Below, piece by piece: positions 22,488 to 53,651 of a stretch of 64,000 bases of DNA; position 1 is the stretch's first letter, and every line of letters begins with the position of its first letter. The position numbers and the translations under genes were made by a program. Source of the stretch: an uncultured Clostridia bacterium (GTDB taxonomy: Bacteria > Bacillota > Clostridia > Lachnospirales > Lachnospiraceae); the NCBI GenBank assembly GCA_947385955.1, contig CANDNA010000011.1, positions 1 to 64,000 of the forward strand, given 5' to 3'. Under the pieces are notes generated by a model. That model was not told where the DNA came from, made no database searches, and saw only the letters and a program-made list of their open reading frames with translations.

Positions 22488-23906
22488 TTACAGTCTGGTT
22501 ATCCGAAAGATTTTAAAATCATTGTGTTCGATTCCGAAATTGCCCATAAAGGTTTTCTGAAAGCCATGCTCCGCCAGATATTCCTCTGTGGGGGTGGGCC
22601 AGTAAATGGTATCCAGAAGCCAGATATTCTCATACTCTGTGTTGTCCAGATCCATTCCCTGCCACAGCACCTTTTCCTCATCGCTCCAGTAATAGTCATA
22701 AATGAATTTATAGCTCTCATAATTATAGGCAATGATATCCCGTTCTCCCACATGGGCATCCAGAAACGCTTCTGTCTCCGCCGTATGGGTCCATTCATAC
22801 TCCCGGTATACCGACTGTTTATAATCCACCAGGCCCGCACACAGGAAACAAAGCAGCAGAGCCCCATACACCGCTTTGTCCGCATACCGGGACAGGGTAA
22901 TGGCAAGAAACAGTGCCAAAAGCCCCATACAGGGCAGGAGATAACGTACGATAAACACCGGCCGGATCAGTGCGGACGCTGTGATTCCCGTCAGGGCCGT
23001 TCCCACAGGCACCAGCAGACACAGCAGTGCAAACAAACCTGCTCCCACCTCTTCTTTCTGCCCTGTCCTGGCCGACAGCATCATCCGGATGGCAAAAAAC
23101 AGAGAAAGAGCCAAAAATCCCAGCCAGAACGCTGTCGTACCCGGTATACCCATATCGAACAGAAACGGGAAAAATGCCTTTACCGTTTCCCCGGTGATCT
23201 CCTCAATCCAGTAATTTCTTGACACCCCTTTGACCTGCAGCTCCATATAGGGCATCCAGGGCGCAAACAGCACCAGGGATGCGATCACCGACAACAGCCA
23301 TTTGAGCAGTTCCCTCCGCTTTCCAATCAAAAGCGCCAGAAACAGAAATCCGTAAATCAAAATGGCGGAAACGAATGCAAAATAATGGGTATAGGCAGCA
23401 GCCACAGAGGTCAGGACAATCCCTGCATAAAAACGCAGGCCCTGCTCCAGATATGCCTCATACGCCCACAATGCCATAAACGTAAGAAAGAAAATCGCCC
23501 AGGAATACATACGCACCTGCACTGCATATTCCATCGTACAGGGGATCACTCCCAGTAAAATACTGTACAGCACCGCCGCCCGCAGGCCAAACCGCCTGCG
23601 GACGATCAGGGCGCCCCAGCTCATACACAGAAACATGGGCAGGATGGACACCAGCTTCAGGCACAGCAGGCTGTCTCCGAATGCCAGCGTAAAGCACTTG
23701 GCAATCAGATAATACAGCGGCGGGTGCACATCCGAGGCAGTCCCCTTTAAAATACCTGCAAAATCCGAATGCAGCAGTTCAATGGTAAATGCCTCGTCTG
23801 TCCATATATTGTTGTTGAAACATAAAGACAGATAACACAGGAAGAAAAGCAGGGCCAGTCCCAGCAAAATCCCCTGCTGCTGTCTGTTGGATACGTTACT
23901 CTTCAT
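22488..23906 (-). CDS. GT39/ArnT-like membrane glycosyltransferase (GT-C)
   Basis: About 472 residues with ten to twelve helices. After helix 1, NNIWTDEAFTIELL holds the acidic pair of the catalytic loop, and SDVHPPLYYLIAKCF is the second conserved loop of the GT39/GT83 group. A final soluble domain starts near residue 370. These enzymes move a sugar from polyprenyl phosphate to a glycan, lipid or protein outside the membrane. The neighbouring GtrB-like GT2 (23896-24843) overlaps its start and would make the donor, a classic two-gene side-chain module. ATG 23906 is preferred over 23912 because of AAAGGA seven bases upstream. Confidence 0.8.
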   Translation of the reverse strand: MKSNVSNRQQQGILLGLALLFFLCYLSLCFNNNIWTDEAFTIELLHSDFAGILKGTASDVHPPLYYLIAKCFTLAFGDSLLCLKLVSILPMFLCMSWGALIVRRRFGLRAAVLYSILLGVIPCTMEYAVQVRMYSWAIFFLTFMALWAYEAYLEQGLRFYAGIVLTSVAAAYTHYFAFVSAILIYGFLFLALLIGKRRELLKWLLSVIASLVLFAPWMPYMELQVKGVSRNYWIEEITGETVKAFFPFLFDMGIPGTTAFWLGFLALSLFFAIRMMLSARTGQKEEVGAGLFALLCLLVPVGTALTGITASALIRPVFIVRYLLPCMGLLALFLAITLSRYADKAVYGALLLCFLCAGLVDYKQSVYREYEWTHTAETEAFLDAHVGERDIIAYNYESYKFIYDYYWSDEEKVLWQGMDLDNTEYENIWLLDTIYWPTPTEEYLAEHGFQKTFMGNFGIEHNDFKIFRITRL

Positions 23907-24843
23907 TTTCATTTCCTTTTTGCCCGATGACCTCCCGGATCACATATTGGGGCGAATTATTCAGGCTGATATAGATTCTTCCCACATATTCCCCGATCAG
24001 CCCCAGCATCAGCATAATCATCCCTCCGAGAAAGACCACTGCGGACATCAGGGAACTGAATCCCACCGGTACAGCCGGATTGATCAGGCGCTTGATAATC
24101 GTATAAATCCCATACAGAAAACCGCTGACCGCGCACAGGATGCCTATAATAGTGGCAAACCGCAGAGGCTGGATGGAAAATGCGGTGAACCCGTTAAACC
24201 ACAGGCCCAGCAGGGCTTTCATCGTATAGCCCGAATGCCCCGATTCCCGCTGCCTGTGTTTTATGTCCACATTGCTGATATTTTTGGTGGTCCGCAGCAC
24301 CAGCCCGATCACATAGGGATAGGAATTTTCATATCTGACCACTTCCTCTATTACAAATCTGCGGGCGGCAAAATAACTGGAAATATACAGCTCCTTTGGT
24401 TTGCCCAGCATAAAGCGGGTCATAATCTCATTGACTTTACTGCCAAAATTGCGGAACGCGGAATGCTGTTTATTCAGATATCTGGCATAGACCACATCCT
24501 GGCCTGATTCGATGCCTTCCAGAAATTTTCCCACATCTTCCGCCGGCGTCTGCCCATCGTCATCCAGACAGATCACAATATCGCCGGTCACATGCCGGAA
24601 CCCGGCCATCAATGCGGCATGCTGCCCGAAATTCCTGGCCAGAGAGATTCCCCGGATATTGTCCTGAGCCGCGCAAAGTGACCGGATCACCTCCAGTGTC
24701 TGATCCGGCGAGCAGTCATTGACCAGAATGATCTCATATACATATCGGGAAAGCTGTGCCATCGTCCTGTTAATTTCATCCACCACATGAGGCAGCGTCA
24801 GCTCAGACCGATAACAGGGAATCACAAAACTTACTTTATCCAT
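23896..24843 (-). CDS. GtrB/ArnC-like family 2 glycosyltransferase, polyprenyl-phosphate sugar synthase
   Basis: 315 residues. The GT-A domain has SFVIPCYRSE, ILVNDCSPD, SLARNFGQHAALMAG and the metal motif CLDDDGQTP (about 93-101). Two C-terminal membrane helices (about 232-256 and 267-292) end the protein, with the GEYVGRIYISLNNSPQYVI tail typical of GtrB, ArnC and CsbB. It forms undecaprenyl-phosphate-sugar in the inner leaflet. Overlaps with the GNAT gene before (8 bases) and the GT39 gene after (11 bases) suggest that its donor feeds the GT39 enzyme and that the sugar could be the amino sugar acetylated by the GNAT. Confidence 0.9.
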   Translation of the reverse strand: MDKVSFVIPCYRSELTLPHVVDEINRTMAQLSRYVYEIILVNDCSPDQTLEVIRSLCAAQDNIRGISLARNFGQHAALMAGFRHVTGDIVICLDDDGQTPAEDVGKFLEGIESGQDVVYARYLNKQHSAFRNFGSKVNEIMTRFMLGKPKELYISSYFAARRFVIEEVVRYENSYPYVIGLVLRTTKNISNVDIKHRQRESGHSGYTMKALLGLWFNGFTAFSIQPLRFATIIGILCAVSGFLYGIYTIIKRLINPAVPVGFSSLMSAVVFLGGMIMLMLGLIGEYVGRIYISLNNSPQYVIREVIGQKGNENEE

Positions 24844-32279: not shown

Positions 32280-32966
32280 TTACGGCCGCAAAATCCTTAC
32301 CGCTTCAAAGGCTTCCACATAATGGGCCCCGGCCACACCGCCCCACCGGGCAGCCACAGCCCGCAGCATTTCCAGAGAGCGTGGGTGGGGATAGGCACAC
32401 AGTTCTGTCTCATAGGCCTGCATGGCTGTCAGCTTCTTTTCAAACTGCTCTTCTGTCAGCTTTATAAACACATTGGGGGCAAACTGGGCGTCCCCATAGG
32501 CGAAATTCCATTCGGTAGAGGAAACTGTCTCAAATGCATAAAGCTCCCGTACCGACTGGCCTTCCATGGGCCGGGTGGCCGTCAGCACCGCCCGGTAAGT
32601 GAGCGTATGATCCACATTCAGATCTCCTCCATGATGGGTATAGACCACGGCAGGCGAAAGGGCGCTGATCTTTTGCTCCACTGCTTTGACCAGCTCCAGC
32701 AAATCCACACTGTCAAACCGGTTATCGGCAAAATTTTCAAAAAACACTTCCCGGATTCCCAATATGCGGGCTGCCTCTTTGGTATTGGCGTGCAGACGCC
32801 CTATAAGCTCCGCTCCCGCATCCTCTCTTTTTTCAAACCGTGAAGTCTGTCCCTCTCCCAGTATCAGGGCATACACATTGTCACCGCACTCCGCATGCCT
32901 GGCAGCGGTCCCGCCCACTCCCAATATCTCATCGTCCGGATGGGCTGCCACAATCAAAACATTCAT
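32280..32966 (-). CDS. PIG-L family deacetylase within the pse operon
   Basis: 228 residues. NVLIVAAHPDDEILGVGGTAARH contains the intact His-Pro-Asp-Asp zinc/base motif, and YTHHGGDLNVDHTLTYRAV supplies the third metal ligand. Such proteins remove N-acetyl groups from sugars or lipid-linked sugars. PIG-L is not part of the standard Pse pathway; its ATGA overlap with the GNAT-formyltransferase gene means the two are made together, suggesting that an acetyl group is removed and a formyl or other acyl group placed. Substrate unproven. Confidence 0.88.
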   Translation of the reverse strand: MNVLIVAAHPDDEILGVGGTAARHAECGDNVYALILGEGQTSRFEKREDAGAELIGRLHANTKEAARILGIREVFFENFADNRFDSVDLLELVKAVEQKISALSPAVVYTHHGGDLNVDHTLTYRAVLTATRPMEGQSVRELYAFETVSSTEWNFAYGDAQFAPNVFIKLTEEQFEKKLTAMQAYETELCAYPHPRSLEMLRAVAARWGGVAGAHYVEAFEAVRILRP

Positions 32967-34168
32967 TCTCTGTCCGTCCTTTTCTCAAACCTTACCTGCG
33001 CCGTTACCCGGCCATTCTGAAAATCAGCTCCATAAAACCGCAATGTATACTCTCCCAGGCGGATAAACGCATTGGGATAGCCTTCCCCGTCCAGCATACG
33101 GATGTAATCATAGATAGTTTTCTCATCCATCTGCGGCAAAAGCTGCCCGTCCTCCGGTTTCCTGCGCTTAAATACCACCGCTTCCCCGCTCTGGGGCACC
33201 GGGTCTGGCCTGTGTTCCAGCAGGTACGGAATCATTTTTGAAAACACAATGCCGGAAGCCCGCCGCAAAACCTCTTCTGCCGTCCCTTCCAGAGAAAGCT
33301 CCTCTTTCAGATACACATCGCCCGTATCCAGCCCTGCATCCACCCGGATGGCAGACAGCCTGGTGTGGGTATGTCCCCGCACAATCAGATTCTGCAGAGG
33401 GCTGCCCCCTCTGCCATAAGGCAGATCTGTCATATGAAATACCACACAGGGAAACCGGCTGTAAATCGCCTCCGGTATCAGATACGACCAGTGCGGGAAA
33501 AACACATACACAGGAGACAACGCCTCCACCCGTTCCCGGGTCAGCTCTTCTTTCTTTGTGATGACGCTTATGTCATATTCTGTGTCATATCTTTCCTTCA
33601 TCTGACGGGCCAGCTCTGCATTCCAGGATTTCTGCGTACAGATCAGGATGGCCGGACGCTGCCTGCGTACATCCTCACAGACTTTTTCAAAGACCAGACA
33701 GCCGTCCTCCTCCTTCTTTTCAAAACCGCATTTTTCAAACACACGGGCTGAGGCCGGATTGCTCTTCTTCACCCTGCCTGTAAATGTCCTGACCCTCTTC
33801 CCTGCGCCGGCAAACTCTTCCTGTGCCCGTTCCATCCCCTGTTCCAGAAGGGAGGCGCCATATCCCTGTCCCCGCAGGGAGGATACGACAGAATAATCGA
33901 TTTCCGCCCTGCCGTCCTCCAGATCCAGCCGTATCTGTCCCACACATTTTTCCGACATATCTGTCATATAAATAAAACCGATATAGATCAGACAATTTTC
34001 ATCTGCCAGCTTCCCCTTCAGCCACTGCAGATGCTCTTCCCAGACAATTTCTTCCTGAGAAAAGGCATTCCGCCTCACATCCATATCATTGGCCCAGGAA
34101 AATAACAACTCCCCATCCCCTGCGCCTGCCCGCCTTACATGCAGCCGCCTCCTGCCTGCATCCTTCAT
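32963..34168 (-). CDS. Fused GNAT acetyltransferase (PseH-like) and N10-formyl-THF-type formyltransferase
   Basis: 401 residues, two domains. Residues about 1-165 form a GNAT of the PseH kind (SWANDMDVRRNAFSQEEI, LRGQGYGASLLEQGM, ARVFEKCGFEKK). Residues about 170-400 form a formyltransferase: FHMTDLPYGRGGSPLQNLI contains the catalytic His and LDTGDVYLK the catalytic Asp; the usual Asn two residues before the His is Val here. PseH acetylates C4-NH2 of UDP-4-amino-4,6-dideoxy-AltNAc; the second domain would transfer a formyl group to a sugar amine. No tRNA binding domain is present, so methionyl-tRNA formylation is unlikely. Joined by ATGA overlaps to pseI and the PIG-L gene. Confidence 0.88.
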   Translation of the reverse strand: MKDAGRRRLHVRRAGAGDGELLFSWANDMDVRRNAFSQEEIVWEEHLQWLKGKLADENCLIYIGFIYMTDMSEKCVGQIRLDLEDGRAEIDYSVVSSLRGQGYGASLLEQGMERAQEEFAGAGKRVRTFTGRVKKSNPASARVFEKCGFEKKEEDGCLVFEKVCEDVRRQRPAILICTQKSWNAELARQMKERYDTEYDISVITKKEELTRERVEALSPVYVFFPHWSYLIPEAIYSRFPCVVFHMTDLPYGRGGSPLQNLIVRGHTHTRLSAIRVDAGLDTGDVYLKEELSLEGTAEEVLRRASGIVFSKMIPYLLEHRPDPVPQSGEAVVFKRRKPEDGQLLPQMDEKTIYDYIRMLDGEGYPNAFIRLGEYTLRFYGADFQNGRVTAQVRFEKRTDRE

Positions 34169-35238
34169 TTTATTTCTCCCCGTATCATATCCATCTGCAG
34201 CGGCGTCCCCCGCTTTAAATCCGCCGCCGCTTTTTTTCCCAGCACCGCTTCATAATACTTGGGGGCCAGTCCGTTGGAGGGACGGATCACACGGATGTTT
34301 TCTTCTGTCAGTATTTCTCCGGCCCGGATGTCCTGTACCACAAACACGGAACGACGGAATGCCAGATTCCCCTGCTCACCCTCTGTGGCGCCAAAGCTGG
34401 CACTGCCCACGGCCCGCTGGGCTGCCCGTACATCCCGCACCATCGCCGCAAACTCTGTTGGTTCCATTGAAAACGAGGAATCCGGATTTTTGATTTTCCG
34501 GTCCAGGCAGAAATGCTTTTCAATGATCCTGCCGCCCAGCGCCACTGCAGCCACGGCGCCCACAGACCCCATCGAATGATCGGACAGTCCTGTCGGCACA
34601 TTGAAAATCCGTTCCATCTCTGTCATAGCCGCCAGATTCATATGTTCCGAAACCGCCGGATAGGCACTGGCACAGCGCAGCAGGGCGAGCTGACTGCATC
34701 CCGCTTCCCTTGCTGCCTCCACCGCTTCTCTGATTTCCTGTAAAGTCCCCATTCCGGTTGACATAATCATCGGTTTGCCTTTGGAGGCCACATAGCGGAT
34801 CAACGGGATATCCACCAGCTCAAAGGAAGCAATTTTATAAAACTGCATACCGATGCTTTCCAGAAAATCCACCGATGTCCGGTCAAAGGGAGTGGAAAAA
34901 AAATCAATCCCCACCCTTTTTGCCTCTTCCATCAGACTGGCCTGCCACTCCCAGGGCGTATAGGCTTTCTGATAAAGGCCATACAGATTTTCCCCCTTCC
35001 AGGTCCCGTCCTCAATATGAAAGCAGGCATTGTCACAGTCTATGGTCATGGTATCCGCCGTATAGGTCTGGATTTTCACGCAGTCCGCACCGGATTCCTT
35101 TGCCGCATGGATGATTTCCCTGGCATGCTCCAGGCTGCCCGCATGGTTTGCCGACATTTCGGCTATGATATAGACCGGGTGCTCTCCTCCGATCTGCCGC
35201 TCTCCGATTTTGATTACAGGTTTCTTCTTCTCCGGCAT
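34165..35238 (-). CDS. pseI: PseI: pseudaminic acid synthase
   Basis: 357 residues. The NeuB-like barrel (about 1-290) has YIIAEMSANHAGSLEHA, CVKIQTYTADTMT, FFSTPFDRTSVDFL, IASFELVDIPLI and DHSMGSVGAVAAVALGG, and the C-terminal SAF/antifreeze domain ends the protein. The TYTADTMTID segment is typical of PseI rather than NeuB or LegI. It condenses the trideoxy-altrose derivative with phosphoenolpyruvate. GAGG is seven bases before the ATG at 35238. It sits between pseF and the GNAT-formyltransferase fusion. Confidence 0.94.
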   Translation of the reverse strand: MPEKKKPVIKIGERQIGGEHPVYIIAEMSANHAGSLEHAREIIHAAKESGADCVKIQTYTADTMTIDCDNACFHIEDGTWKGENLYGLYQKAYTPWEWQASLMEEAKRVGIDFFSTPFDRTSVDFLESIGMQFYKIASFELVDIPLIRYVASKGKPMIMSTGMGTLQEIREAVEAAREAGCSQLALLRCASAYPAVSEHMNLAAMTEMERIFNVPTGLSDHSMGSVGAVAAVALGGRIIEKHFCLDRKIKNPDSSFSMEPTEFAAMVRDVRAAQRAVGSASFGATEGEQGNLAFRRSVFVVQDIRAGEILTEENIRVIRPSNGLAPKYYEAVLGKKAAADLKRGTPLQMDMIRGEIK

Positions 35239-35251
35239 CCTTCCACCTCGT

Positions 35252-35953
35252 TTACTTTCCTTTTTTCATCATCTGATATTTCAGTTCTGCCAGTTCCCAG
35301 TCGGTTTCATTGTCAATGTCCTGCACTTCCAGCTCCGGCATTTCAATCGAAACAGTCCTGTCCGTAAAAATTTGCCGCTTTTGTAAAAACTGCTCCGTCC
35401 GCAGCAGATAAAACTGGCCGCAGTCATGAAAATAAGGCTCCAGATCCTGAGAACGGGTACCGGCATGCTCTGGATGCTTCATTACCGTCAGCCCGCCGCG
35501 GATCACAAAAGCCCGCTGAGGCGGAAAAGAGTACCGCACCACCGGCACCACCGAATCCGCGCCGCTCTCTGTCAGCAGCGCTGCAGCCTGCTGCAGCTTC
35601 CCTGCCGTTACAAAAGGGGCCGTGGGATACAGGCAGCATACCTCTTCAAAGCTCTCTCCCCGCTCTCTGTAAGCGTCCAATACCTCCAGCAGCACCTCCG
35701 CCGTTGTGGCAAAATCCCCGGCATTTTCCCTGCTCCGCAGAAAGGGCACCTGTGCCCCGGCTGCTCTGGCCGTTTTTGCAATCTCCGGGCTGTCCGTGGA
35801 TACCATGACCTCATCAAACAGGCCGCTTTCCAGGGCAGCTTCCACCGGATAGGCCAGCATGGGCCTGCCGCAGAAGGGCCTGATATTTTTTCCCGGAATC
35901 CTCTTACTGCCTCCTCTGGCAGTAATGATAGCAATCCGTTTTTTCTGTTCCAT
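35252..35953 (-). CDS. pseF: PseF: CMP-pseudaminic acid synthetase
   Basis: 233 residues. RIAIITARGGSKRIPGKNIRPF is the CTP-binding loop of CMP-sialate synthetases, then MLAYPVEAALESGLFDEVMVSTDSPEIA and YPTAPFVTAGKLQQA. The GGSKRIPGKN spelling matches PseF. It activates Pse with CTP. ATG 35953 is used because the longer frame to 36103 runs into the pseC reading frame; AAGGA is about ten bases upstream. The product is the donor for a CMP-sugar transferase, possibly the GT52 protein at 43362-44429. Confidence 0.93.
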   Translation of the reverse strand: MEQKKRIAIITARGGSKRIPGKNIRPFCGRPMLAYPVEAALESGLFDEVMVSTDSPEIAKTARAAGAQVPFLRSRENAGDFATTAEVLLEVLDAYRERGESFEEVCCLYPTAPFVTAGKLQQAAALLTESGADSVVPVVRYSFPPQRAFVIRGGLTVMKHPEHAGTRSQDLEPYFHDCGQFYLLRTEQFLQKRQIFTDRTVSIEMPELEVQDIDNETDWELAELKYQMMKKGK

Positions 35954-35976
35954 GTATCTTCTGTCCTTCTTTCCCT

Positions 35977-37170
35977 TTATTTCCGATAATATGTGCACAG
36001 TTTCCGTACTGCTTCGATCACATCCGATACGTCCTGATCTGTCATGGAATAGTACAGAGGCAGGCTCATGATCTCCCCGTACAGCTTTTCCGCTTCCGGA
36101 CACAGCCCCTTTTCATACCCGAGATGCTCATAATAGGGATGCCAGTACACGGGAATATAATGTACATTACAGCATATATTTTCTGCTGCCATAGCATCAA
36201 AAAACTGCTTCCGGTCTATGGTCAGCCGCTCCGGTCTGAGCCTTAAAATATACAGGTGCCTGGTTGTTTCGGACTGTTCGATCTCCTGCTGTACCGCCAC
36301 TTCCGGAATCTCCTGGAATGCCTCATTGTACCTGGCCACAATCTCACTTCTCCGTCCGGAAAACAACTCCAGCTTGTCAAGCTGGCTGCGGATTAAAGCA
36401 GCCTGAATGTCCGTCATCCGGTAATTCATCCCCAGTGCCAGTTGTTCATAATACCAGCCTCCCTGGGACTTATGTTCCAGCAAAGACTCATCTCTTGTGA
36501 TTCCATGTGCCCGGAACAGCCTGACTTTGGTATAGATGTCACTGTCATTGGTCAGGACGGCGCCTCCCTCTCCTCCGGTGACGGTTTTTACCGGATGAAA
36601 GCTGAATGTGGTCAGATCCGCAATCGAACCCACCGGCCTGCCGTTATAACGGGTACCGATGGAATGGGCCGCATCTTCAATCAGAAGGATTCCCCGCTCC
36701 CGGCACAGGGCCAGCAGCGCATCCAGCTCCGCCGCCTGTCCGGTAAAATCCACTGCCACCACAGCTTTTGTGGCATCGGTGATCTTTTCGGCCACAGATG
36801 CCGGATCTATATTATACGTATGGGGATTGATATCGGCAAACACCACTCTGGCGCCGCAGTACAATGCACAGTTGGCCGAAGCCGCAAATGTAATGGGGGT
36901 GGTAATTACCTCATCCCCCTCCTGTATCCCCGCTGCCTGACATGCCACATGCAATGCAGCCGTTCCGTTGCTGACCACTGCCGCATGTCCTGCTCCTGTC
37001 AGATCGCACAGCCGCTGTTCCAGCTTCGTAATTTCCGGCCCGCATGTTAAATTGTCACTGCACAGTACACGGACCACAGCTTCGATATCCGCTTTATCCA
37101 GATACTGATGTCCATAAAACAGCTTACTGCTCCGGACGGGCCTGCCGCCTTCCACAGCCGGTTTTTCCAT
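35977..37170 (-). CDS. pseC: PseC: UDP-4-amino-4,6-dideoxy-L-AltNAc aminotransferase
   Basis: 397 residues. FYGHQYLDKADIEAVVRVL at the start and LTCGPEITKLE are PseC marks, with SNGTAALHVACQAA, TPITFAASANCALYCGA, VDFTGQAAELD and SFHPVKTVTGGEGG (PLP Lys) following. It transaminates the product of PseB. AAAGGAG lies nine bases before the ATG at 37170. A 12-bp inverted repeat sits in the 132-base gap that separates it from pseB. Confidence 0.95.
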   Translation of the reverse strand: MEKPAVEGGRPVRSSKLFYGHQYLDKADIEAVVRVLCSDNLTCGPEITKLEQRLCDLTGAGHAAVVSNGTAALHVACQAAGIQEGDEVITTPITFAASANCALYCGARVVFADINPHTYNIDPASVAEKITDATKAVVAVDFTGQAAELDALLALCRERGILLIEDAAHSIGTRYNGRPVGSIADLTTFSFHPVKTVTGGEGGAVLTNDSDIYTKVRLFRAHGITRDESLLEHKSQGGWYYEQLALGMNYRMTDIQAALIRSQLDKLELFSGRRSEIVARYNEAFQEIPEVAVQQEIEQSETTRHLYILRLRPERLTIDRKQFFDAMAAENICCNVHYIPVYWHPYYEHLGYEKGLCPEAEKLYGEIMSLPLYYSMTDQDVSDVIEAVRKLCTYYRK

Positions 37171-38384: not shown

Positions 38385-40541
38385 TTATCGTTCTGTAAAC
38401 AGCCAAATCTGTTCCCCGCTGCCGGTGTATGGTTCCACAGCCAGCTCTCCGTCCCTGGCCGTCAGGGCAAAGCCCCCGTCACAAGTGATAGCATAACCCT
38501 TTTCCCCATCCGGTATACCCGCCTTTCTCAAAGCATCCGATGTGCCTCCTTCCTCCCGGCCGGACACCGGCACAATCTTCCACATAACAGATTCGCAGTC
38601 CTGTGCCGCCCTTACCGGGCCCTCGGCAGGACTGCCGTCAAAAGAAAGCAGATACTGGGTGGACTTCAGCCGCAGGAAATCATACCCATACTCATGATAC
38701 ACACTGACCATATCCCCGCCGTTTTCCGATACGGGTGAAAGGCCCGCCCGGGGCATTCCCCGCTCATCCGGTACATCCAGTGATGACACTGCCTGCTCCG
38801 GCATCAGAAGAGGCCGCAGCCTGTAATAGCCGTTTGCCAGCACAGCCTCCTGTTTTGCCGCCTCTGCATCCTGCTCCGTCCTGGCTTCTGTATAGGAAAC
38901 CGTATCCTCCTGCAGCCGGAACAGGGCCTGAAAAATACCCACAGGCAAAAGCCCCACCAGGGCTGTCACCACAGCCAGGACAGCCAGCACCGTCACGCCT
39001 GCCCGGTCAGGTTTTTTCTCCTCCGTAAAGGCCAATACCCGTTCCGCTGCTGCCAGATAGCCGGAAACAGCACAGGGAATCAGCAAAAGAAAATAGAACA
39101 GCGTATACTGGGCATAGGTTTCCCAAAACAGTTGAAAGAGAAAGCCGCCGATCAATACCACCGCAAAGAACAGTCCTGTGATTTTTTCCCGCTTTCCCCG
39201 TAAAAGCGCCCAGCTAAGCGCCCCCATCAGTACAAGGGCATGAAAGAGATTGGCCCACTTAACCAGCCCGTTCCGGTTATCTTCCCGCAGCATCCTCCGG
39301 ATGAGAGCAGGCCGCTCTGTCTGTGCTTCCGGCCTGTTATTGGCCACCAGACTTTCAAAGGTAGGCTCATTCCATTCCATTGCAATTTTCCTGCCCATAA
39401 ACTCCGCAAAATGCATGGGGGTGTCGGTCAGTCTGGCCAGACGCCGTTTCAGCTCCTCTCCTGCTGCCTGTGCTGCCTTCCCGGTATCCAGATCGTTTTC
39501 CAGATAAACTTCCCGGTTATAGCCGTCAAACTTTACCGGCCTGCCTTCCTCATCCTCACCAAAAGCCATCGTCACCCAGGCGATCATCGGAGAACCTTCC
39601 GACAGAGGAAACCCCAGCCTGTGTTCCACCAGAAGATCCGATCCTTTGCCAAGCAGTGACACCGCTGCCAGAATACATACCATACCGATCAGATTCTGAT
39701 ACCGTCTGCTGCTCCAGAAATCCACCAGCAGAAATACCAGCAGTGCCACCATAAAAATCAAAAATGTATTTTTCAGCCATACCCCGGCGGCGCACAGCAA
39801 CACGCAGCCCGCCAGAAACCGGATGCGCCTCTCTTCCAGATACCGCAGCAGCAGATACACGGCTCCCATAATACAGGCAAAGCCGGGCACATTGCCATAA
39901 ATAAACGTTACATAAAACAAATAGGGCCAGAACAGCATACAGGCCAAAAGGACCGGCAGTTCCCTGTCCCTGCTGCCAAAGATTATGACAGAGCTTTTTG
40001 CCACCAGATTCAGGGAGATCACGATACAGATCACGTTCATGATCTGAAACGCCAGATAATTCAGATTACCGAATACGGCAAAAAATCCCCACAGAAATAC
40101 GGTAATACGGGACTGGAACGGCCAGTATACAAAGTAGCTTTCATTGGCAAACAGCGAGAAATCATACTTTCGCAGCCCCACCGCCCCATTGCTGATGGCC
40201 AGTTGGTCACCATGCGGATGAATCTGATTGGAAACCACAAAAAAGACCAGGAACAAAAACAAAAGACCATTCAAAACCACATATATCCATCGCCGGTGTC
40301 CGTCCAGCCATATCCCGATCCCCGTTCCCCATTTTTTCAGGACAGCCAAAGCTCCCACCAGGGCAGCATACCCAAACAGAGCTTTCCAGGGCGTGTCCGA
40401 AACAAAGAGGGCCGGCTCCCCTACAAAGCAATAATTTGTACTGTACAGGCTCAACAGGGTCAGATACCCCACAAACAGCACAAATAAAGACAATACAAGG
40501 GCACGAAATACGGCGTCCAGTTTTTCTGACAGTTTTGTCAT
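38385..40541 (-). CDS. GT39-like membrane glycosyltransferase with a C-terminal ricin-type beta-trefoil domain
   Basis: 718 residues. Helices fill about residues 15-500, with the first catalytic-type loop at NQIHPHGDQLAISNG and a soluble loop around 320-430. A last helix near 515-538 is followed by a domain of about 145 residues (570-718) that begins NGYYRLRPLL and has YLLSFDG, ESVMWKIVPV, ITCDGGFALTARDG and GEQIWLF. The spaced W-containing repeats look like a ricin B beta-trefoil. Eukaryotic protein mannosyltransferases also carry beta-trefoil (MIR) repeats. ATG 40541 overlaps the GT2 stop (ATGA) and has AGGA five bases upstream. The trefoil would lie outside the membrane and may hold the acceptor glycan. 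Confidence 0.74.
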   Translation of the reverse strand: MTKLSEKLDAVFRALVLSLFVLFVGYLTLLSLYSTNYCFVGEPALFVSDTPWKALFGYAALVGALAVLKKWGTGIGIWLDGHRRWIYVVLNGLLFLFLVFFVVSNQIHPHGDQLAISNGAVGLRKYDFSLFANESYFVYWPFQSRITVFLWGFFAVFGNLNYLAFQIMNVICIVISLNLVAKSSVIIFGSRDRELPVLLACMLFWPYLFYVTFIYGNVPGFACIMGAVYLLLRYLEERRIRFLAGCVLLCAAGVWLKNTFLIFMVALLVFLLVDFWSSRRYQNLIGMVCILAAVSLLGKGSDLLVEHRLGFPLSEGSPMIAWVTMAFGEDEEGRPVKFDGYNREVYLENDLDTGKAAQAAGEELKRRLARLTDTPMHFAEFMGRKIAMEWNEPTFESLVANNRPEAQTERPALIRRMLREDNRNGLVKWANLFHALVLMGALSWALLRGKREKITGLFFAVVLIGGFLFQLFWETYAQYTLFYFLLLIPCAVSGYLAAAERVLAFTEEKKPDRAGVTVLAVLAVVTALVGLLPVGIFQALFRLQEDTVSYTEARTEQDAEAAKQEAVLANGYYRLRPLLMPEQAVSSLDVPDERGMPRAGLSPVSENGGDMVSVYHEYGYDFLRLKSTQYLLSFDGSPAEGPVRAAQDCESVMWKIVPVSGREEGGTSDALRKAGIPDGEKGYAITCDGGFALTARDGELAVEPYTGSGEQIWLFTER

Positions 40542-41590
40542 GTTTTTCCTGTTCCTTTCCACTTTCTTCTCAGTTTCCGATAACCGGTCAGCGCCCTGTA
40601 ATAGAAAAGAAACAGCGGCGCAGAGCGCATATGCAGACTCACCAGCTTTTTCTGCTCCCTGTCATACTCCTTCTGAAAATAAGGATTGTGCTGAAAATCC
40701 GGAAATGCTTCCAGCATCCCCCGGCGCAGTTCCTCCAGAAATCCCACCCTTACATGATTCACCCCGATGACATACGTAAACAAAGTGTTGAAATAATACA
40801 GCTTGGCAAATGCAAACTCCAGCTCCTGTCTGTATGGCTCATAAAATCCGCATTCCCTGCACCCGGACAGCAGCAGCTCTCCCGCCCGCATCCTGTCCCT
40901 GCATTTTGCCTCGCTGATGTTATGGGTCGTGGATACCGGATCCTGATAATAATAGTACAGCGGCTCCTCCACTTTTTCAAAATGGGTAAAATGCAGCATC
41001 CACAAAGGACCGGCACAGTTATCCTCATAAAAAATCCCCTCCGGAAACCGGAGATGATAACGGTCTATCACTTCTTTTTTATAAATCTTGATCACCATAC
41101 TGCAGGGGTTCAGCATCAGTTTCCTGTACTGCTCCTCTCCCAATGCTCCGGTCTGATCCATCGTATTGGCATTGACAATCCTGCCGATCTTCATGCTGTG
41201 CTCACCGGTTTCATGCAGATCGCAGCCCACCACATCCGCACCGGTTTCCTGCGCCCTGCGAAGCAGCTTTTCATACATCGTATCCGCAGCCCAGTCATCT
41301 CCGTCCATAAAGCCGATCCATTCTCCCTGTGCCGCATCCAGGCCCAGATTCCGGGCGCCGCCCTGTCTTTTGTTTTCCGGTGTCTGAAACGCCCGCACCG
41401 TTCCCGGATACCTGGCTTCGTAATCCTTCAGCAGTTCATAAGTGCCGTCCTGAGAGCAGTCGTCCACCGCCAGTATTTCCATATCCCCGATCATCGTCTG
41501 ATGCACCAGAGAATCCATACAGTATTTCAGATATTCCGGCCTTTTGCCCGATGCCATTTTATAAAACGGGACAATGACGCTCAGTTTCAT
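40538..41590 (-). CDS. Family 2 glycosyltransferase
   Basis: 350 residues. KLSVIVPFYK opens the GT-A domain, EILAVDDCSQDGT and NKRQGGARNLGLDAAQGEWIG follow, and FMDGDDWA is the metal motif. The C-terminal half is helical with EGIFYEDNCAGPLWML, a region seen in capsule GT2 enzymes that add hexoses or hexosamines. No membrane segments, so it works in the cytoplasm on the lipid-linked repeat. ATG 41590 has AGAGGAGG eight bases upstream. It is followed by the GT39/trefoil gene with an ATGA overlap. Confidence 0.9.
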   Translation of the reverse strand: MKLSVIVPFYKMASGKRPEYLKYCMDSLVHQTMIGDMEILAVDDCSQDGTYELLKDYEARYPGTVRAFQTPENKRQGGARNLGLDAAQGEWIGFMDGDDWAADTMYEKLLRRAQETGADVVGCDLHETGEHSMKIGRIVNANTMDQTGALGEEQYRKLMLNPCSMVIKIYKKEVIDRYHLRFPEGIFYEDNCAGPLWMLHFTHFEKVEEPLYYYYQDPVSTTHNISEAKCRDRMRAGELLLSGCRECGFYEPYRQELEFAFAKLYYFNTLFTYVIGVNHVRVGFLEELRRGMLEAFPDFQHNPYFQKEYDREQKKLVSLHMRSAPLFLFYYRALTGYRKLRRKWKGTGKT

Positions 41591-41628
41591 CCGGCACACC
41601 TCCTCTTACCATCTGCCTGCAGCGGCTT

Positions 41629-43362
41629 TCACCTCTCCCTGCTGATCTTTCCGTCCGCAACCCGGTACACCATATCGCACTTTTCAATGGTCTGCAGCCT
41701 GTGGGCAATGATGACCAGTGTCTTTTTCCCCTGGAACCGGTTGATGGACTCCATAATTGCCGCCTCTGTATCATTGTCCAGTGCGGAAGTTGCCTCATCC
41801 AGGATCAGTACCTCCGGATCATGGTACAGTGCCCTGGCAATGCCGATCCGCTGCCGCTGTCCGCCGGAGATCCGGATGCCCCGTTCCCCGATTCCCGTGT
41901 GGACCCCTTCCGGCAGGGTTTTTACAAACTCATCCAATTGGGCTTCCTGCAGGGCATACCAGAGCTTTTCCTCATCAATCTCCTCTTCCGGTATACCAAA
42001 GGCCACGTTCCGGCGGATGTCATCGTCCAGCAGGAAAATCATCTGGGGGATATAGCCCACATTTTTCAGCCACCCTCTGTAATCTTCCATAATGTCCACG
42101 CCGTCTGCGCAGATACTGCCCTCTCTTACCTTTAAAAGGCCCAGCAGGATGTCCACGATCGTCGTCTTGCCGGAGCCGGAACCGCCCACGATACCTACGG
42201 AGCTGCCCACAGGAATGGTCATATCCGCATGGTCAAAGATCAGCTTGTCCGTATTGGGATAGGCATAGGTAATCCCCTTCAGTGTAATTTCCCTCTCCAC
42301 CGGAAGTTTCTCCGCTTCCTCCGCATAGGACAGGTCTGTGTTTTCTTCACTGGTTTCCTCCAGCAGGTTGTCGCTTACATTCATAAAAAACGGCTCATAA
42401 TAAGCCAACTGGGTCAACTGGTTGTTAATCCTGCTGGCAGAAGGCATCAGACGCACTGCCGCCATTGCAAATGCAGACAGAGCCGGCATCATTTCCGTCA
42501 GATCCTTTCCCGTCATCACGATTACCAGCATATAGGCCACCATGCCTGCGATACATACGGTTTCGATCAACAGCTTGGGGGCATTGCTGAACAGATTCAG
42601 CCGCTCCATTGCCGCCACATAATGGGCGCCCCGGCGGGAATATTCCCGGATAAAATAATGTTCTTTTCCGATGATCTTGATTTCCTTCATGCCGCCCACC
42701 GTCTGGCTCAGCCACTGATAGATCAGGCTGGAATAATCCTGATTCTCCTTGCCGGTGCGGTACATAATGGGTTTGATTACCTCTTTGATCACCACCAGCG
42801 TCACCACCAAAAGCCCGGCAATCACCAGCGTCATCTTGAAATCCACCACAAACAGCGCCACTGCCAGCATAAAAAATACGGTACACTCCGAAAGTATCTG
42901 CAATAACGATAAAATAAGCAGATAGGCATTGACCACATCCGCCGCTATAATACGCTGGATGGTGGAAGTCTCAATATTCAGATAGAACTCATAGTCCCGT
43001 TTCACAAAGCTGCGGAGCATCTTTTCCTGGGTTTCAAACTGATTTTTATAGACAAACCGATACATCATTTTCTGCAGAAGAAACAAAAACAGGTTTTTGC
43101 AGACAAATGCAATGACCATTGCCGCCATGACAAATACGGTAAACTGCCTCGGACTTGTCATATGCAGTCCCTGATAGACTGCTGCCATCACCCGGTTGTT
43201 TTCCACCGCATCCGGAGAAAGCACCAGTGTCATCACCGGAATAATCAGGGAGATACTGGCAGTTTCCAGAAATGCACCGAATACCATCATCACCAGCAAA
43301 AGCCCCATTGTCCGCTTCTGTTTCCTGTTCATGATCATCATGAGTTTTTTATATATTTTCAT
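41629..43362 (-). CDS. PglK/MsbA-like ABC exporter half-transporter, probable lipid-linked glycan flippase (copy 1)
   Basis: 577 residues. Six helices in about the first 320 residues, then the ATPase domain with Walker A GGSGSGKTT, signature ISGGQRQRIG and Walker B VLILDEATSALD. It shares the whole plan and many stretches with the exporter at 711-2453, e.g. the NDTEAAIM(D/E)(A/S)INRF segment after Walker B, so the two are paralogs. Homologs flip undecaprenyl-linked oligosaccharides. ATG 43362 shares its first base with the stop of the GT52 gene (TAATG) and has GGAG nine bases upstream. No Wzx is near, so this is the likely flippase of the first glycan. Confidence 0.88.
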   Translation of the reverse strand: MKIYKKLMMIMNRKQKRTMGLLLVMMVFGAFLETASISLIIPVMTLVLSPDAVENNRVMAAVYQGLHMTSPRQFTVFVMAAMVIAFVCKNLFLFLLQKMMYRFVYKNQFETQEKMLRSFVKRDYEFYLNIETSTIQRIIAADVVNAYLLILSLLQILSECTVFFMLAVALFVVDFKMTLVIAGLLVVTLVVIKEVIKPIMYRTGKENQDYSSLIYQWLSQTVGGMKEIKIIGKEHYFIREYSRRGAHYVAAMERLNLFSNAPKLLIETVCIAGMVAYMLVIVMTGKDLTEMMPALSAFAMAAVRLMPSASRINNQLTQLAYYEPFFMNVSDNLLEETSEENTDLSYAEEAEKLPVEREITLKGITYAYPNTDKLIFDHADMTIPVGSSVGIVGGSGSGKTTIVDILLGLLKVREGSICADGVDIMEDYRGWLKNVGYIPQMIFLLDDDIRRNVAFGIPEEEIDEEKLWYALQEAQLDEFVKTLPEGVHTGIGERGIRISGGQRQRIGIARALYHDPEVLILDEATSALDNDTEAAIMESINRFQGKKTLVIIAHRLQTIEKCDMVYRVADGKISRER

Positions 43363-44429
43363 TACACCGTTCTCCAATTATGCTTTTCCGGGTCCTCATA
43401 CTGATCCCAGAAGGTATCTCCCAGATTGATTTTTTCATCTGCAAAATCAATGGTATCCAATGCGGTGGTGGCAATGGATATCACCTTTTTAAAATGTACC
43501 CCTTCCAGAAAGTTCAGTACCTCCACCGGGAATTTCCCACGGATTACCGTACAGTCCGGCCGCAGCGCCCCATAATCAATCAGATCCCTGGGATGAGGCT
43601 TGATGATTACATGAGCGCCCTGGCAGTAATCCCGGATAATATCATGGCAGATCTGTTTTCTGGCCTCCTCGGACTGGGGATGGGGCTGTGTCAGAAACAG
43701 GATACAGTCTCCCTTTGCCTTCTCCCCCAGTTCCTGCACAAAGCGTTCCCCGTCCTCCATAAAAATTTCCAGCATGGTCCGCTTCTGTTCCCCGGTCAGT
43801 CCCTGTTCCAGCGGTTTTCTCGGTACCACCTTATAGTTGGGACCGATATGCCGCAGACAGGACAGATCGTTGACTTCCATATCCAGGCAGTACCTGCCGT
43901 AACCGTTCTGGATAAAGATGATATTCAGGGACGAAAGAAAGGCTTTCAGTTTAAAATGTCCCCGGTTATCATAATGGGCGCCGTCCAGATATTTCAGGCA
44001 GTCCAGCCCGTCCTCCAGGGCATGGTAGCAGATATGTTTATAATTCAGATAATAGCCGATGGGGTCGCTGTCACAATATACGTACACATCCTGATATTGC
44101 TCAAACGGTATGGTCATATAGGGCGCTTCCCGTCTGCCCAGCTTTTTGGTGTACAGGATTCGGTTATACAGATGCCGCAGAATATTATGATAAGATTTCT
44201 TATACTTTGCCAGTTCCGGAAAGAAACTGTCTTTTTTTTCATCCAACAGATACACGTGGGCAAAAACCCCGCATTTCTCCAGCCGTCCCTTCAGCACCGA
44301 CAGGTCGGAAGAGATCGTGCTCAGGGCAATATCCGCCTGTCCCTGCTGCTCCGCGGGCAGGGCAAATTCCTTTAACAATGTCACATAAATATTGTAAAAG
44401 GTATGGCAAACATAGATTCTCTCTTTCAT
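43362..44429 (-). CDS. GT52-like sialyltransferase family protein, candidate nonulosonic acid (Pse) transferase
   Basis: 355 residues. ERIYVCHTFYNIYVTLLKE is the usual N-terminus of GT52 lipooligosaccharide sialyltransferases. YHALEDGLDCL provides the acidic D/E-D/E-G motif, IIKPHPRDLIDY the His-Pro motif for the CMP donor, and SIATTALDTI the late Ser/Thr stretch. Group B streptococcal CpsK is also GT52, so a Gram-positive example is known. Because this locus makes CMP-Pse and shows no NeuA/NeuB, the donor is probably CMP-Pse or a derivative. ATG 44429 overlaps the GT4 stop (ATGA) and has AAGGAG nine bases upstream. Confidence 0.82.
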   Translation of the reverse strand: MKERIYVCHTFYNIYVTLLKEFALPAEQQGQADIALSTISSDLSVLKGRLEKCGVFAHVYLLDEKKDSFFPELAKYKKSYHNILRHLYNRILYTKKLGRREAPYMTIPFEQYQDVYVYCDSDPIGYYLNYKHICYHALEDGLDCLKYLDGAHYDNRGHFKLKAFLSSLNIIFIQNGYGRYCLDMEVNDLSCLRHIGPNYKVVPRKPLEQGLTGEQKRTMLEIFMEDGERFVQELGEKAKGDCILFLTQPHPQSEEARKQICHDIIRDYCQGAHVIIKPHPRDLIDYGALRPDCTVIRGKFPVEVLNFLEGVHFKKVISIATTALDTIDFADEKINLGDTFWDQYEDPEKHNWRTV

Positions 44430-52718: not shown

Positions 52719-53651
52719 CTAAAATTCTTCCTTTATCAGATAAATTGGTCTGTTTTTCACTTCCATATACATTTTGGCCATATATTGTCCCACAATTCCC
52801 AGACACAAAAGCTGTACACCGCTGATCAGGGAAATAATGCATACCAGAGAAGGCCAGCCCGAAGTAGGATCTCCGAATATGACCGTTCGCACAATGGTAA
52901 AGACAATCAGGATAAATGCCAAAAGGCAGAACACCAGGCCAATGATAGATACAAACGCCAGAGGCATTGTGGAAAAAGCCAGAATACCGTCCAGAGAATA
53001 TAAAAAGAGTTTCCAGAAATTCCACTTGGTCTCCCCTTTGGTACGCTCTATATTTTCATATTCCAGCCACTTGGTTTCAAATCCCACCCAGCCGAAAATC
53101 CCTTTTGTAAAGCGGTTATACTCTGTCATGGAAAGGATGGCATCCACTACCTTCCGTTTCATCAGCCGGTAGTCTCTGGCCCCGTCCACGATTTCCGTAT
53201 GGGAGATCCGCTTCATCAGCGCATAAAACCTTCTGGCAAAGAAAGAACGGATCACCGGTTCTCCCTTCCGTGTCACCCGTCTTGTTGCCACAGAATCATA
53301 GCCCTCTTCTTCCAGATAATGAAGCATCTCCGGAAGCAACGACGGCGGATCCTGCAGATCCGCATCCATCAACACCACATATTCTCCCGATGCTTTCTTA
53401 AGGCCGGCATAAATTCCCGCTTCCTTTCCAAAATTCCGGGAAAAGGAAACCAGATGGACCCGTTTGTCCTTTTCATACAGCTTTTTGACTTCTTCCACCG
53501 TTCTGTCTCCGGAACCGTCATCCACATAGATCAGTTCCAGCCCGATCTTGCGCTGCTCCAGAGCGGCTTCCTGCTTCATCAGCTCTTCATAAAAATAGGA
53601 TACATTTTCTTCTTCATTATAACAGGGGACAATTACGCTCAATACTTTCAT
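52719..53651 (-). CDS. GtrB/CsbB-like family 2 glycosyltransferase, polyprenyl-phosphate sugar synthase
   Basis: 310 residues. LSVIVPCYNEEENV, IYVDDGSGDRT, SFSRNFGKEAGIYAGLKKA and MDADLQDPP (metal motif) form the GT-A domain. DYRLMKRKVVDAIL and TKGETKWNFWKL follow, and two C-terminal helices (about 232-255 and 262-289) end in the GQYMAKMYMEVKNRPIYLI tail. Such proteins attach glucose, GlcNAc or another sugar to undecaprenyl phosphate. The donor could feed the DUF6077-like or GT-C proteins outside. TAGGAG is six bases before ATG 53651. Confidence 0.92.
   Translation of the reverse strand: MKVLSVIVPCYNEEENVSYFYEELMKQEAALEQRKIGLELIYVDDGSGDRTVEEVKKLYEKDKRVHLVSFSRNFGKEAGIYAGLKKASGEYVVLMDADLQDPPSLLPEMLHYLEEEGYDSVATRRVTRKGEPVIRSFFARRFYALMKRISHTEIVDGARDYRLMKRKVVDAILSMTEYNRFTKGIFGWVGFETKWLEYENIERTKGETKWNFWKLFLYSLDGILAFSTMPLAFVSIIGLVFCLLAFILIVFTIVRTVIFGDPTSGWPSLVCIISLISGVQLLCLGIVGQYMAKMYMEVKNRPIYLIKEEF

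What the first reader, a model, noticed from the sequence alone, without database searches (positions are those of the whole stretch)
38385..40541. GT39-like glycosyltransferase fused to a beta-trefoil lectin domain
The last 145 or so residues after the final helix look like a ricin-type trefoil (repeated W motifs, YYRLRP start), outside the membrane. Eukaryotic protein O-mannosyltransferases carry trefoil MIR domains on a similar scaffold, so this may be a bacterial parallel in which the lectin holds the glycan acceptor.
Basis: partly seen in the sequence, partly recalled or inferred. Interest (0 to 1): 0.6.

Follow-up and report, generated by a model that had tools for sequence, protein, structure and literature searches.

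The report
Membrane sugar transferase with lectin tail
A membrane enzyme in a bacterial surface-sugar gene cluster carries, on the outside of the cell, a small ricin-like sugar-binding-type domain that probably holds the growing sugar chain while the enzyme decorates it; this arrangement is known in principle, but this particular combination was not found in the papers searched.

Summary
The gene is real: minus strand, ATG at 40541, stop at 38385-38387, 718 aa, overlapping the upstream GT2 gene by 4 bases. Its core matches Pfam PMT_2 (PF13231, E 3.5e-8). Residues 570-718 form a degenerate ricin-type beta-trefoil. The single sequence hits nothing, but a profile of 12 homologous tails finds almost only trefoil lectins in the PDB (best 1.7e-6), and its reversed control finds none. 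The window's own close subfamily aligns end to end with genuine RicinB domains (hhalign 94.4%; reversed 0.1%). Repeats beta and gamma are recognisable; alpha is degenerate. Charge pattern and homologue anatomy put the tail outside the membrane: untailed relatives end in a positively charged, presumably cytosolic stub, while tailed ones add one more helix. A core tree places all C-terminally extended forms on one side of a supported branch. AlphaFold failed (pLDDT 35-39), so the fold rests on sequence profiles. Most likely it transfers a sugar from an undecaprenyl-phosphate donor to a surface glycan held by the trefoil. Sugar binding is unproven: canonical ricin binding residues are missing, as far as can be aligned by eye. 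It is not a MIR domain and sits elsewhere than in eukaryotic PMTs. Best precedents: EmbC, GT136.

The parts
38385..40541 (-). whole gene, 718 aa: PMT_2-type GT-C glycosyltransferase with C-terminal beta-trefoil
   Evidence: single copy in the genome
39045..40541 (-). membrane core, residues 1-499 (about 12 TM helices; PMT_2 match at 149-295)
   Evidence: tree of 53 cores
40206..40208 (-). Asp112 in the first large extracytoplasmic loop (HPHGDQ), candidate catalytic acid
   Evidence: D in 51 of 51 cores with a residue there
38934..38990 (-). extra last TM helix, residues 518-536, absent in untailed homologues
38835..38933 (-). charged linker, residues 537-569
   Evidence: sequence
38388..38834 (-). 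degenerate ricin-type beta-trefoil, residues 570-718
38682..38834 (-). trefoil repeat alpha, residues 570-620; no QxW; holds His616 of the conserved H-D-R set (D621 and R624 follow at the start of beta)
   Evidence: not detectable as a repeat on its own
38568..38681 (-). trefoil repeat beta, residues 621-658 (W654)
   Evidence: beta-gamma profile similarity 86.1%
38388..38498 (-). trefoil repeat gamma, residues 682-718 (QIW713)
40538..41599 (-). upstream GT2 glycosyltransferase, overlaps the target gene by 4 bases
   Evidence: same order in relatives L073 and L074
37303..38322 (-). downstream PseB, first of the pseudaminic acid genes (PseC 35977-37170, PseF 35252-36103, PseI 34165-35238)
   Evidence: NCBIfam, all above cut-off
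41629..43377 (-). ABC flippase resembling PglK (below NCBIfam cut-off)
52719..53651 (-). GT2 with two C-terminal hydrophobic segments, candidate undecaprenyl-phosphate sugar synthase
   Evidence: PF00535; DPM1/GtrB likeness by eye
23896..24843 (-). second such GT2 (ArnC-like by eye), overlapping an untailed PMT_2 gene at 22488-23912

Best explanation
The protein is a 12-13 helix GT-C glycosyltransferase of the PMT_2 type in the cell membrane of a Clostridia-like bacterium (organism inferred, not named by the tools). It takes a sugar from undecaprenyl phosphate, made in the cytoplasm by one of the cluster's DPM1/ArnC-like GT2 enzymes and flipped outward, and with Asp112 in the first outer loop as base transfers it to an acceptor outside the cell. 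The acceptor is most likely the surface polysaccharide or glycan built by the same cluster. The C-terminal beta-trefoil, hung outside by one extra helix and a short linker, binds the acceptor chain, keeps it near the active site, and so raises processivity or sets which residue is modified. Shown here: gene, domain limits, trefoil homology, distribution of the extended forms on one side of a supported branch, purifying selection. Inferred: topology in detail, donor, acceptor, sugar binding, catalytic role of Asp112.
For: PMT_2 match above cut-off. Asp112 invariant in 51/51 cores. Tail profile A2 versus PDB: mostly trefoil lectins, best 1.7e-6; close subfamily A4: ThreeFoil first (0.022), 3 of 4 hits trefoils; reversed control: none. 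A2 profile ranks 30 PF14200-bearing ORFs of sister genomes ahead of all other ORFs. hhalign of A4 with those domains 94.4% over 128 columns; reversed 0.1%. L015 tail matches RicinB_lectin_2 at 4e-5, one bit under the cut-off. Positive-inside pattern puts the tail outside. Untailed homologues end in about 20 residues with 4.3 K/R to 1.75 D/E. All 13 trefoil, 6 stub and 2 other C-extended cores lie on one side of a 97/93 branch. dN/dS of the tail 0.08-0.25. Cluster context: initiating transferase PF02397, EpsG, ABC flippase, many GTs, Pse genes. Precedents for acceptor-binding modules on GT-C enzymes: EmbC (PMC3044687), GT136 ORF12 (PMC11127046); trefoil in Pmt2 binds O-mannosyl peptide (PMC7759382).
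Against: AlphaFold with two sequences gave pLDDT 39 (tail) and 35 (whole), so no structural confirmation. The single tail sequence has no Pfam or PDB match. Repeat alpha is degenerate and the ricin site residues are not conserved in beta and gamma by eye, so the domain may have lost sugar binding. Six relatives keep the extra helix but no trefoil, so the trefoil is not essential for all members. No donor or acceptor was shown.
Confidence: 0.6

Rival explanations
1. The trefoil no longer binds sugar and is a structural or protein-protein module: it stabilises the enzyme, pairs it with a partner of the assembly complex, or anchors it to the cell wall.
For: Across 12 tails only structural residues are invariant or nearly so (Y4, L124, W144, G2, L63, W85). 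Ricin-type Q, W and N of the galactose site are replaced in beta (P, R, S) and gamma (A, E, E) by hand alignment. Tails evolve faster than cores (53% versus 66% identity).
Against: A polar set H616, D621, R624 is invariant in the six close tails and could form another site. GT-C enzymes with extra outer modules of known function use them to bind acceptor glycan (PMC3044687, PMC11127046).
Confidence: 0.25
2. The enzyme is a true protein O-glycosyltransferase like eukaryotic or actinobacterial PMT, and the trefoil holds already glycosylated protein product, as the Pmt2 MIR domain does.
For: PMT_2 core; MIR site alpha prefers mannosylated peptide (PMC7759382); the neighbouring Pse pathway is used in flagellin glycosylation in other bacteria (general knowledge).
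Against: No MIR match; domain placed at the C-terminus instead of between TM7 and TM8; the cluster has an initiating sugar-phosphate transferase, EpsG and many GTs, which suits a polymer. Homologues with trefoil occur in genomes without PseI (G282, G091).
Confidence: 0.1
3. The tail is not a trefoil; the similarity comes from composition or short W motifs.
For: Single-sequence searches are empty and the predicted models are uninformative.
Against: Reversed controls are empty or 0.1%, the match is end to end, and independent routes (PDB, PF14200-bearing ORFs) agree.
Confidence: 0.05

Closest known systems
EmbC (mycobacterial arabinosyltransferase, GT-C) with C-terminal lectin-like CBM (PMC3044687)
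   Same: GT-C enzyme with a carbohydrate-binding-type C-terminal domain outside the membrane; the CBM binds acceptor and its mutation impairs chain extension
   Different: EmbC CBM subdomain is a beta-sandwich/jelly roll in a 390-aa two-subdomain C-terminal region; here a 149-aa trefoil; acceptor here unknown
GT136 ORF12 of Citrobacter youngae O1 (GT-C plus CBM, PMC11127046)
   Same: Extracytoplasmic decoration of a surface polysaccharide from an Und-P sugar, with a CBM on the GT-C enzyme
   Different: Different GT and CBM families; the donor and flippase of the present enzyme are not identified
Eukaryotic Pmt1/Pmt2 with MIR trefoil (PMC7759382)
   Same: GT-C mannosyltransferase-type core with a trefoil on the outer/luminal side
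   Different: MIR lies between TM7 and TM8 and carries LH(S/T)H; here ricin-type and C-terminal, after an extra helix
Polypeptide GalNAc-transferases with ricin-type lectin domain
   Same: Ricin-type trefoil C-terminal to a glycosyltransferase, tethered by a linker, steering acceptor choice (PMC5716993)
   Different: Soluble GT-A catalytic domain and UDP donor (general knowledge), not a GT-C membrane enzyme
RicinB_lectin_2 (PF14200) proteins of sister genomes
   Same: Domain homology end to end
   Different: They lie in other kinds of ORF; none was found in the window's own genome by PF14200

Membership tests
PMT_2 / GT-C fold | PF13231 match over the curated cut-off | tested here: met
   34.3 bits versus 26.1, E 3.5e-8
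PMT_2 / GT-C fold | multi-helix core with an acidic residue in the first large outer loop | tested here: met
   hydropathy and positive-inside pattern; D112 in 51/51; function of D112 not tested
CAZy GT39 | sequence membership with characterised GT39 protein mannosyltransferases | tested here: inconclusive
   only PMT_2, which is broad; no GT-C chain found in the PDB with the core profile at E up to 1; no CAZy library available
Ricin-type beta-trefoil (RicinB_lectin_2, CBM13-like) | family match by Pfam | tested here: not met
   window tail: no hit; homologue L015: 24.6 bits versus 25.6. So it is called a diverged homologue, not a Pfam member
Ricin-type beta-trefoil (RicinB_lectin_2, CBM13-like) | homology of the whole domain by profile methods | tested here: met
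   controls in 42 and 56
Ricin-type beta-trefoil (RicinB_lectin_2, CBM13-like) | three repeats with QxW | tested here: inconclusive
   beta and gamma similar (86.1% with A2); gamma has QIW, beta VMW; alpha not detectable
Ricin-type beta-trefoil (RicinB_lectin_2, CBM13-like) | three-dimensional trefoil fold | tested here: inconclusive
   predictions from two sequences failed, pLDDT 39 and 35
Ricin-type beta-trefoil (RicinB_lectin_2, CBM13-like) | sugar binding | not testable with these tools
   canonical site residues not conserved by eye; needs binding assay
MIR-bearing eukaryotic PMT | MIR domain in the loop between TM7 and TM8 | tested here: not met
   no MIR hit in Pfam scans; domain is C-terminal

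The most novel reading that the evidence does not exclude
A clade of Clostridia-type PMT_2 glycosyltransferases acquired, in one event, an extra helix plus an outer ricin-type trefoil that binds the enzyme's own glycan acceptor through a non-canonical site (H616, D621, R624), making it a processivity clamp for surface glycan decoration.
Probability: 0.3. Interest if true: 0.55.

Novelty: new variant of a known kind. Interest (0 to 1): 0.42.

Why it matters
Outer carbohydrate-binding modules on GT-C enzymes are known from only a few cases, with beta-sandwich CBMs in bacteria (EmbC) and MIR trefoils in eukaryotes. A ricin-type trefoil attached to a bacterial PMT_2 enzyme would be an independent solution to the same problem of holding a polymer acceptor. 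The close set of tailed, stub and untailed relatives makes the role of the domain testable by simple removal.

Tried and rejected
Single-sequence Pfam, NCBIfam and PDB searches of the tail: empty. Scan of viral contigs with A1: no relative. Idea that the trefoil serves pseudaminic acid specifically: weakened, since tailed enzymes occur in genomes with no PseI match (G282, G091), though the GT2-PMT-PseB order is kept in the genus and PseC-like genes lie next to L045 and L047. Idea that all long C-terminal tails are trefoils: rejected; L036 has CotH in one copy and another membrane part in the other, L037 and L083 something else. Literature: no paper found describing a ricin-type trefoil on a bacterial PMT_2/GT39 enzyme, in an open-access library only.

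Full report
Observation. The gene at 38385-40541 (minus strand) is an intact 718-residue reading frame whose ATG overlaps the stop of an upstream GT2 gene (ATGA). It occurs once in the genome. Pfam recognises PMT_2 at residues 149-295, 34.3 bits against a cut-off of 26.1.

Relatives. The full protein was searched in 299 genomes of the same family: 33 hold homologues, most about 510-550 aa, some 650-780 aa. Within the genus 6 of 10 genomes hold it. Two of the genus copies are broken as assembled: split in G634 and with an in-frame TAG in G635. Tails of the long forms were aligned (A2, 12 tails; A4, six close tails).

Is it a trefoil? The A2 profile found 39 PDB sequences up to E 10, nearly all trefoil lectins: mosquitocidal toxin trefoils 1.7e-6, HA33-type hemagglutinins from 2.2e-6, ricin-B-like chains, mistletoe lectin, ThreeFoil. 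The same alignment with letters reversed found none. The close subfamily A4 found four sequences, three of them trefoils, ThreeFoil first at 0.022. In the other direction, ORFs bearing PF14200 were fetched from sister genomes; the A2 profile ranked 30 such ORFs above all other ORFs, with full-length domain alignments in the best. hhalign of A4 against twelve of these domains gave 94.4% over 128 columns, and A2 97.5%; reversed alignments gave 0.1%. A2 also aligned in registers shifted by one repeat (76.5 and 74.3%), and repeats beta and gamma match each other at 86.1%, whereas alpha does not. A caveat: the twelve domains were cut out using the A2 profile, so that comparison is partly selected, although the ORFs themselves were chosen by PF14200. 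In one relative, L015, the tail reaches PF14200 at 4e-5, one bit below the cut-off. AlphaFold with two sequences failed; its strand pattern is not used as evidence. I put the trefoil homology at about 0.9-0.95.

Topology. Hydropathy gives 14 hydrophobic segments; with one of the two segments at 146-188 read as a juxtamembrane helix, the positive-inside rule gives 13 helices, N-terminus in, Asp112 loop out, the 123-residue loop out, the K/R-rich stretch 500-517 in, last helix 518-536, tail out (interpretation mine). Homologues without the tail stop about 20 residues after the preceding helix with a positively charged end (mean 4.3 K/R, 1.75 D/E), so the trefoil came with one more helix that carries it outside.

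Evolution. In a tree of 53 cores (508 columns), the 13 trefoil forms, six forms with extra helix but only a stub, and two with other large tails lie together on one side of a branch with 97/93 support, along with three untailed forms; the other 29 untailed forms lie on the other side. One gain followed by losses and replacements is the simplest reading, but the tree is unrooted, and the trefoil label alone needs three changes. The tail is under purifying selection: dN/dS 0.08 between L074 and L077, 0.25 between window and L002 with high dS. It changes faster than the core.

Function. Invariant or nearly invariant core residues include D112, Y136, Y215, K385, W390, W473, E474 and Y479. In GT-C enzymes an acid in the first outer loop is catalytic (general knowledge; DE motif of Pmt in PMC7759382). 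The cluster holds an initiating sugar-phosphate transferase, EpsG, a PglK-like ABC transporter (below its NCBIfam cut-off), many GT1/GT2 enzymes, Pse genes, ManC and GDP-mannose dehydratase, and two GT2 enzymes with C-terminal hydrophobic pairs that look like Und-P sugar synthases by eye. This suits a surface polysaccharide or complex glycan decorated outside the cell. Precedents: EmbC, whose C-terminal CBM binds acceptor (PMC3044687); GT136 ORF12, whose CBM is an added outer domain of a GT-C enzyme (PMC11127046); Pmt2 MIR, which binds O-mannosyl peptide better than bare peptide (PMC7759382); GalNAc-transferases, where a linker-tethered lectin domain steers acceptor choice (PMC5716993). Hence the acceptor-holding model. 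Against a canonical lectin: by hand alignment, the ricin galactose-site Q, W and N are replaced in beta and gamma, and the only conserved polar set is H616, D621, R624 in the close tails.

Pseudaminic acid link. PseB, C, F and I directly downstream are confirmed over NCBIfam cut-offs, and the GT2-PMT-PseB order recurs in relatives. But PseI is common in this family generally, and tailed enzymes occur without it, so Pse is not a general ligand.

Comparison with eukaryotic PMT. Same general idea, different trefoil type and different place in the chain; not a member of the MIR-PMT group. Novelty: a new variant of a known kind. No paper held here describes the combination, but the library is open-access only.

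Noticed in passing
window 32963-34168 (-): A PseH-like GNAT domain fused to a formyltransferase-type domain (PF00551, PF21553) at the end of the Pse genes; it may make an unusual N-acyl or N-formyl pseudaminic acid.
   Followed up: partly
L036 3321-6671 and 6671-10402: Two neighbouring homologues of the core carry, in place of the trefoil, a CotH kinase domain and a second large membrane part, respectively.
   Followed up: partly
window 59287-61572 (+): CotH-kinase-like protein with Fn3-associated, chitobiase C-terminal-like and lamin-tail domains next to the glycan cluster.
   Followed up: no
window 22488-23912 (-): A second PMT_2 enzyme, 474 aa without tail, overlapping an ArnC-like GT2 gene.
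   Followed up: no
L045 3695-4885 (-) and L047 3649-4284 (-): PseC-like aminotransferase genes lie convergent to distant tailed homologues in another genus.
   Followed up: partly
G467:C75:8578-12417 (L048 holds the first): Two homologues in tandem whose matches both run to the end of a trefoil-tailed query.
   Followed up: no
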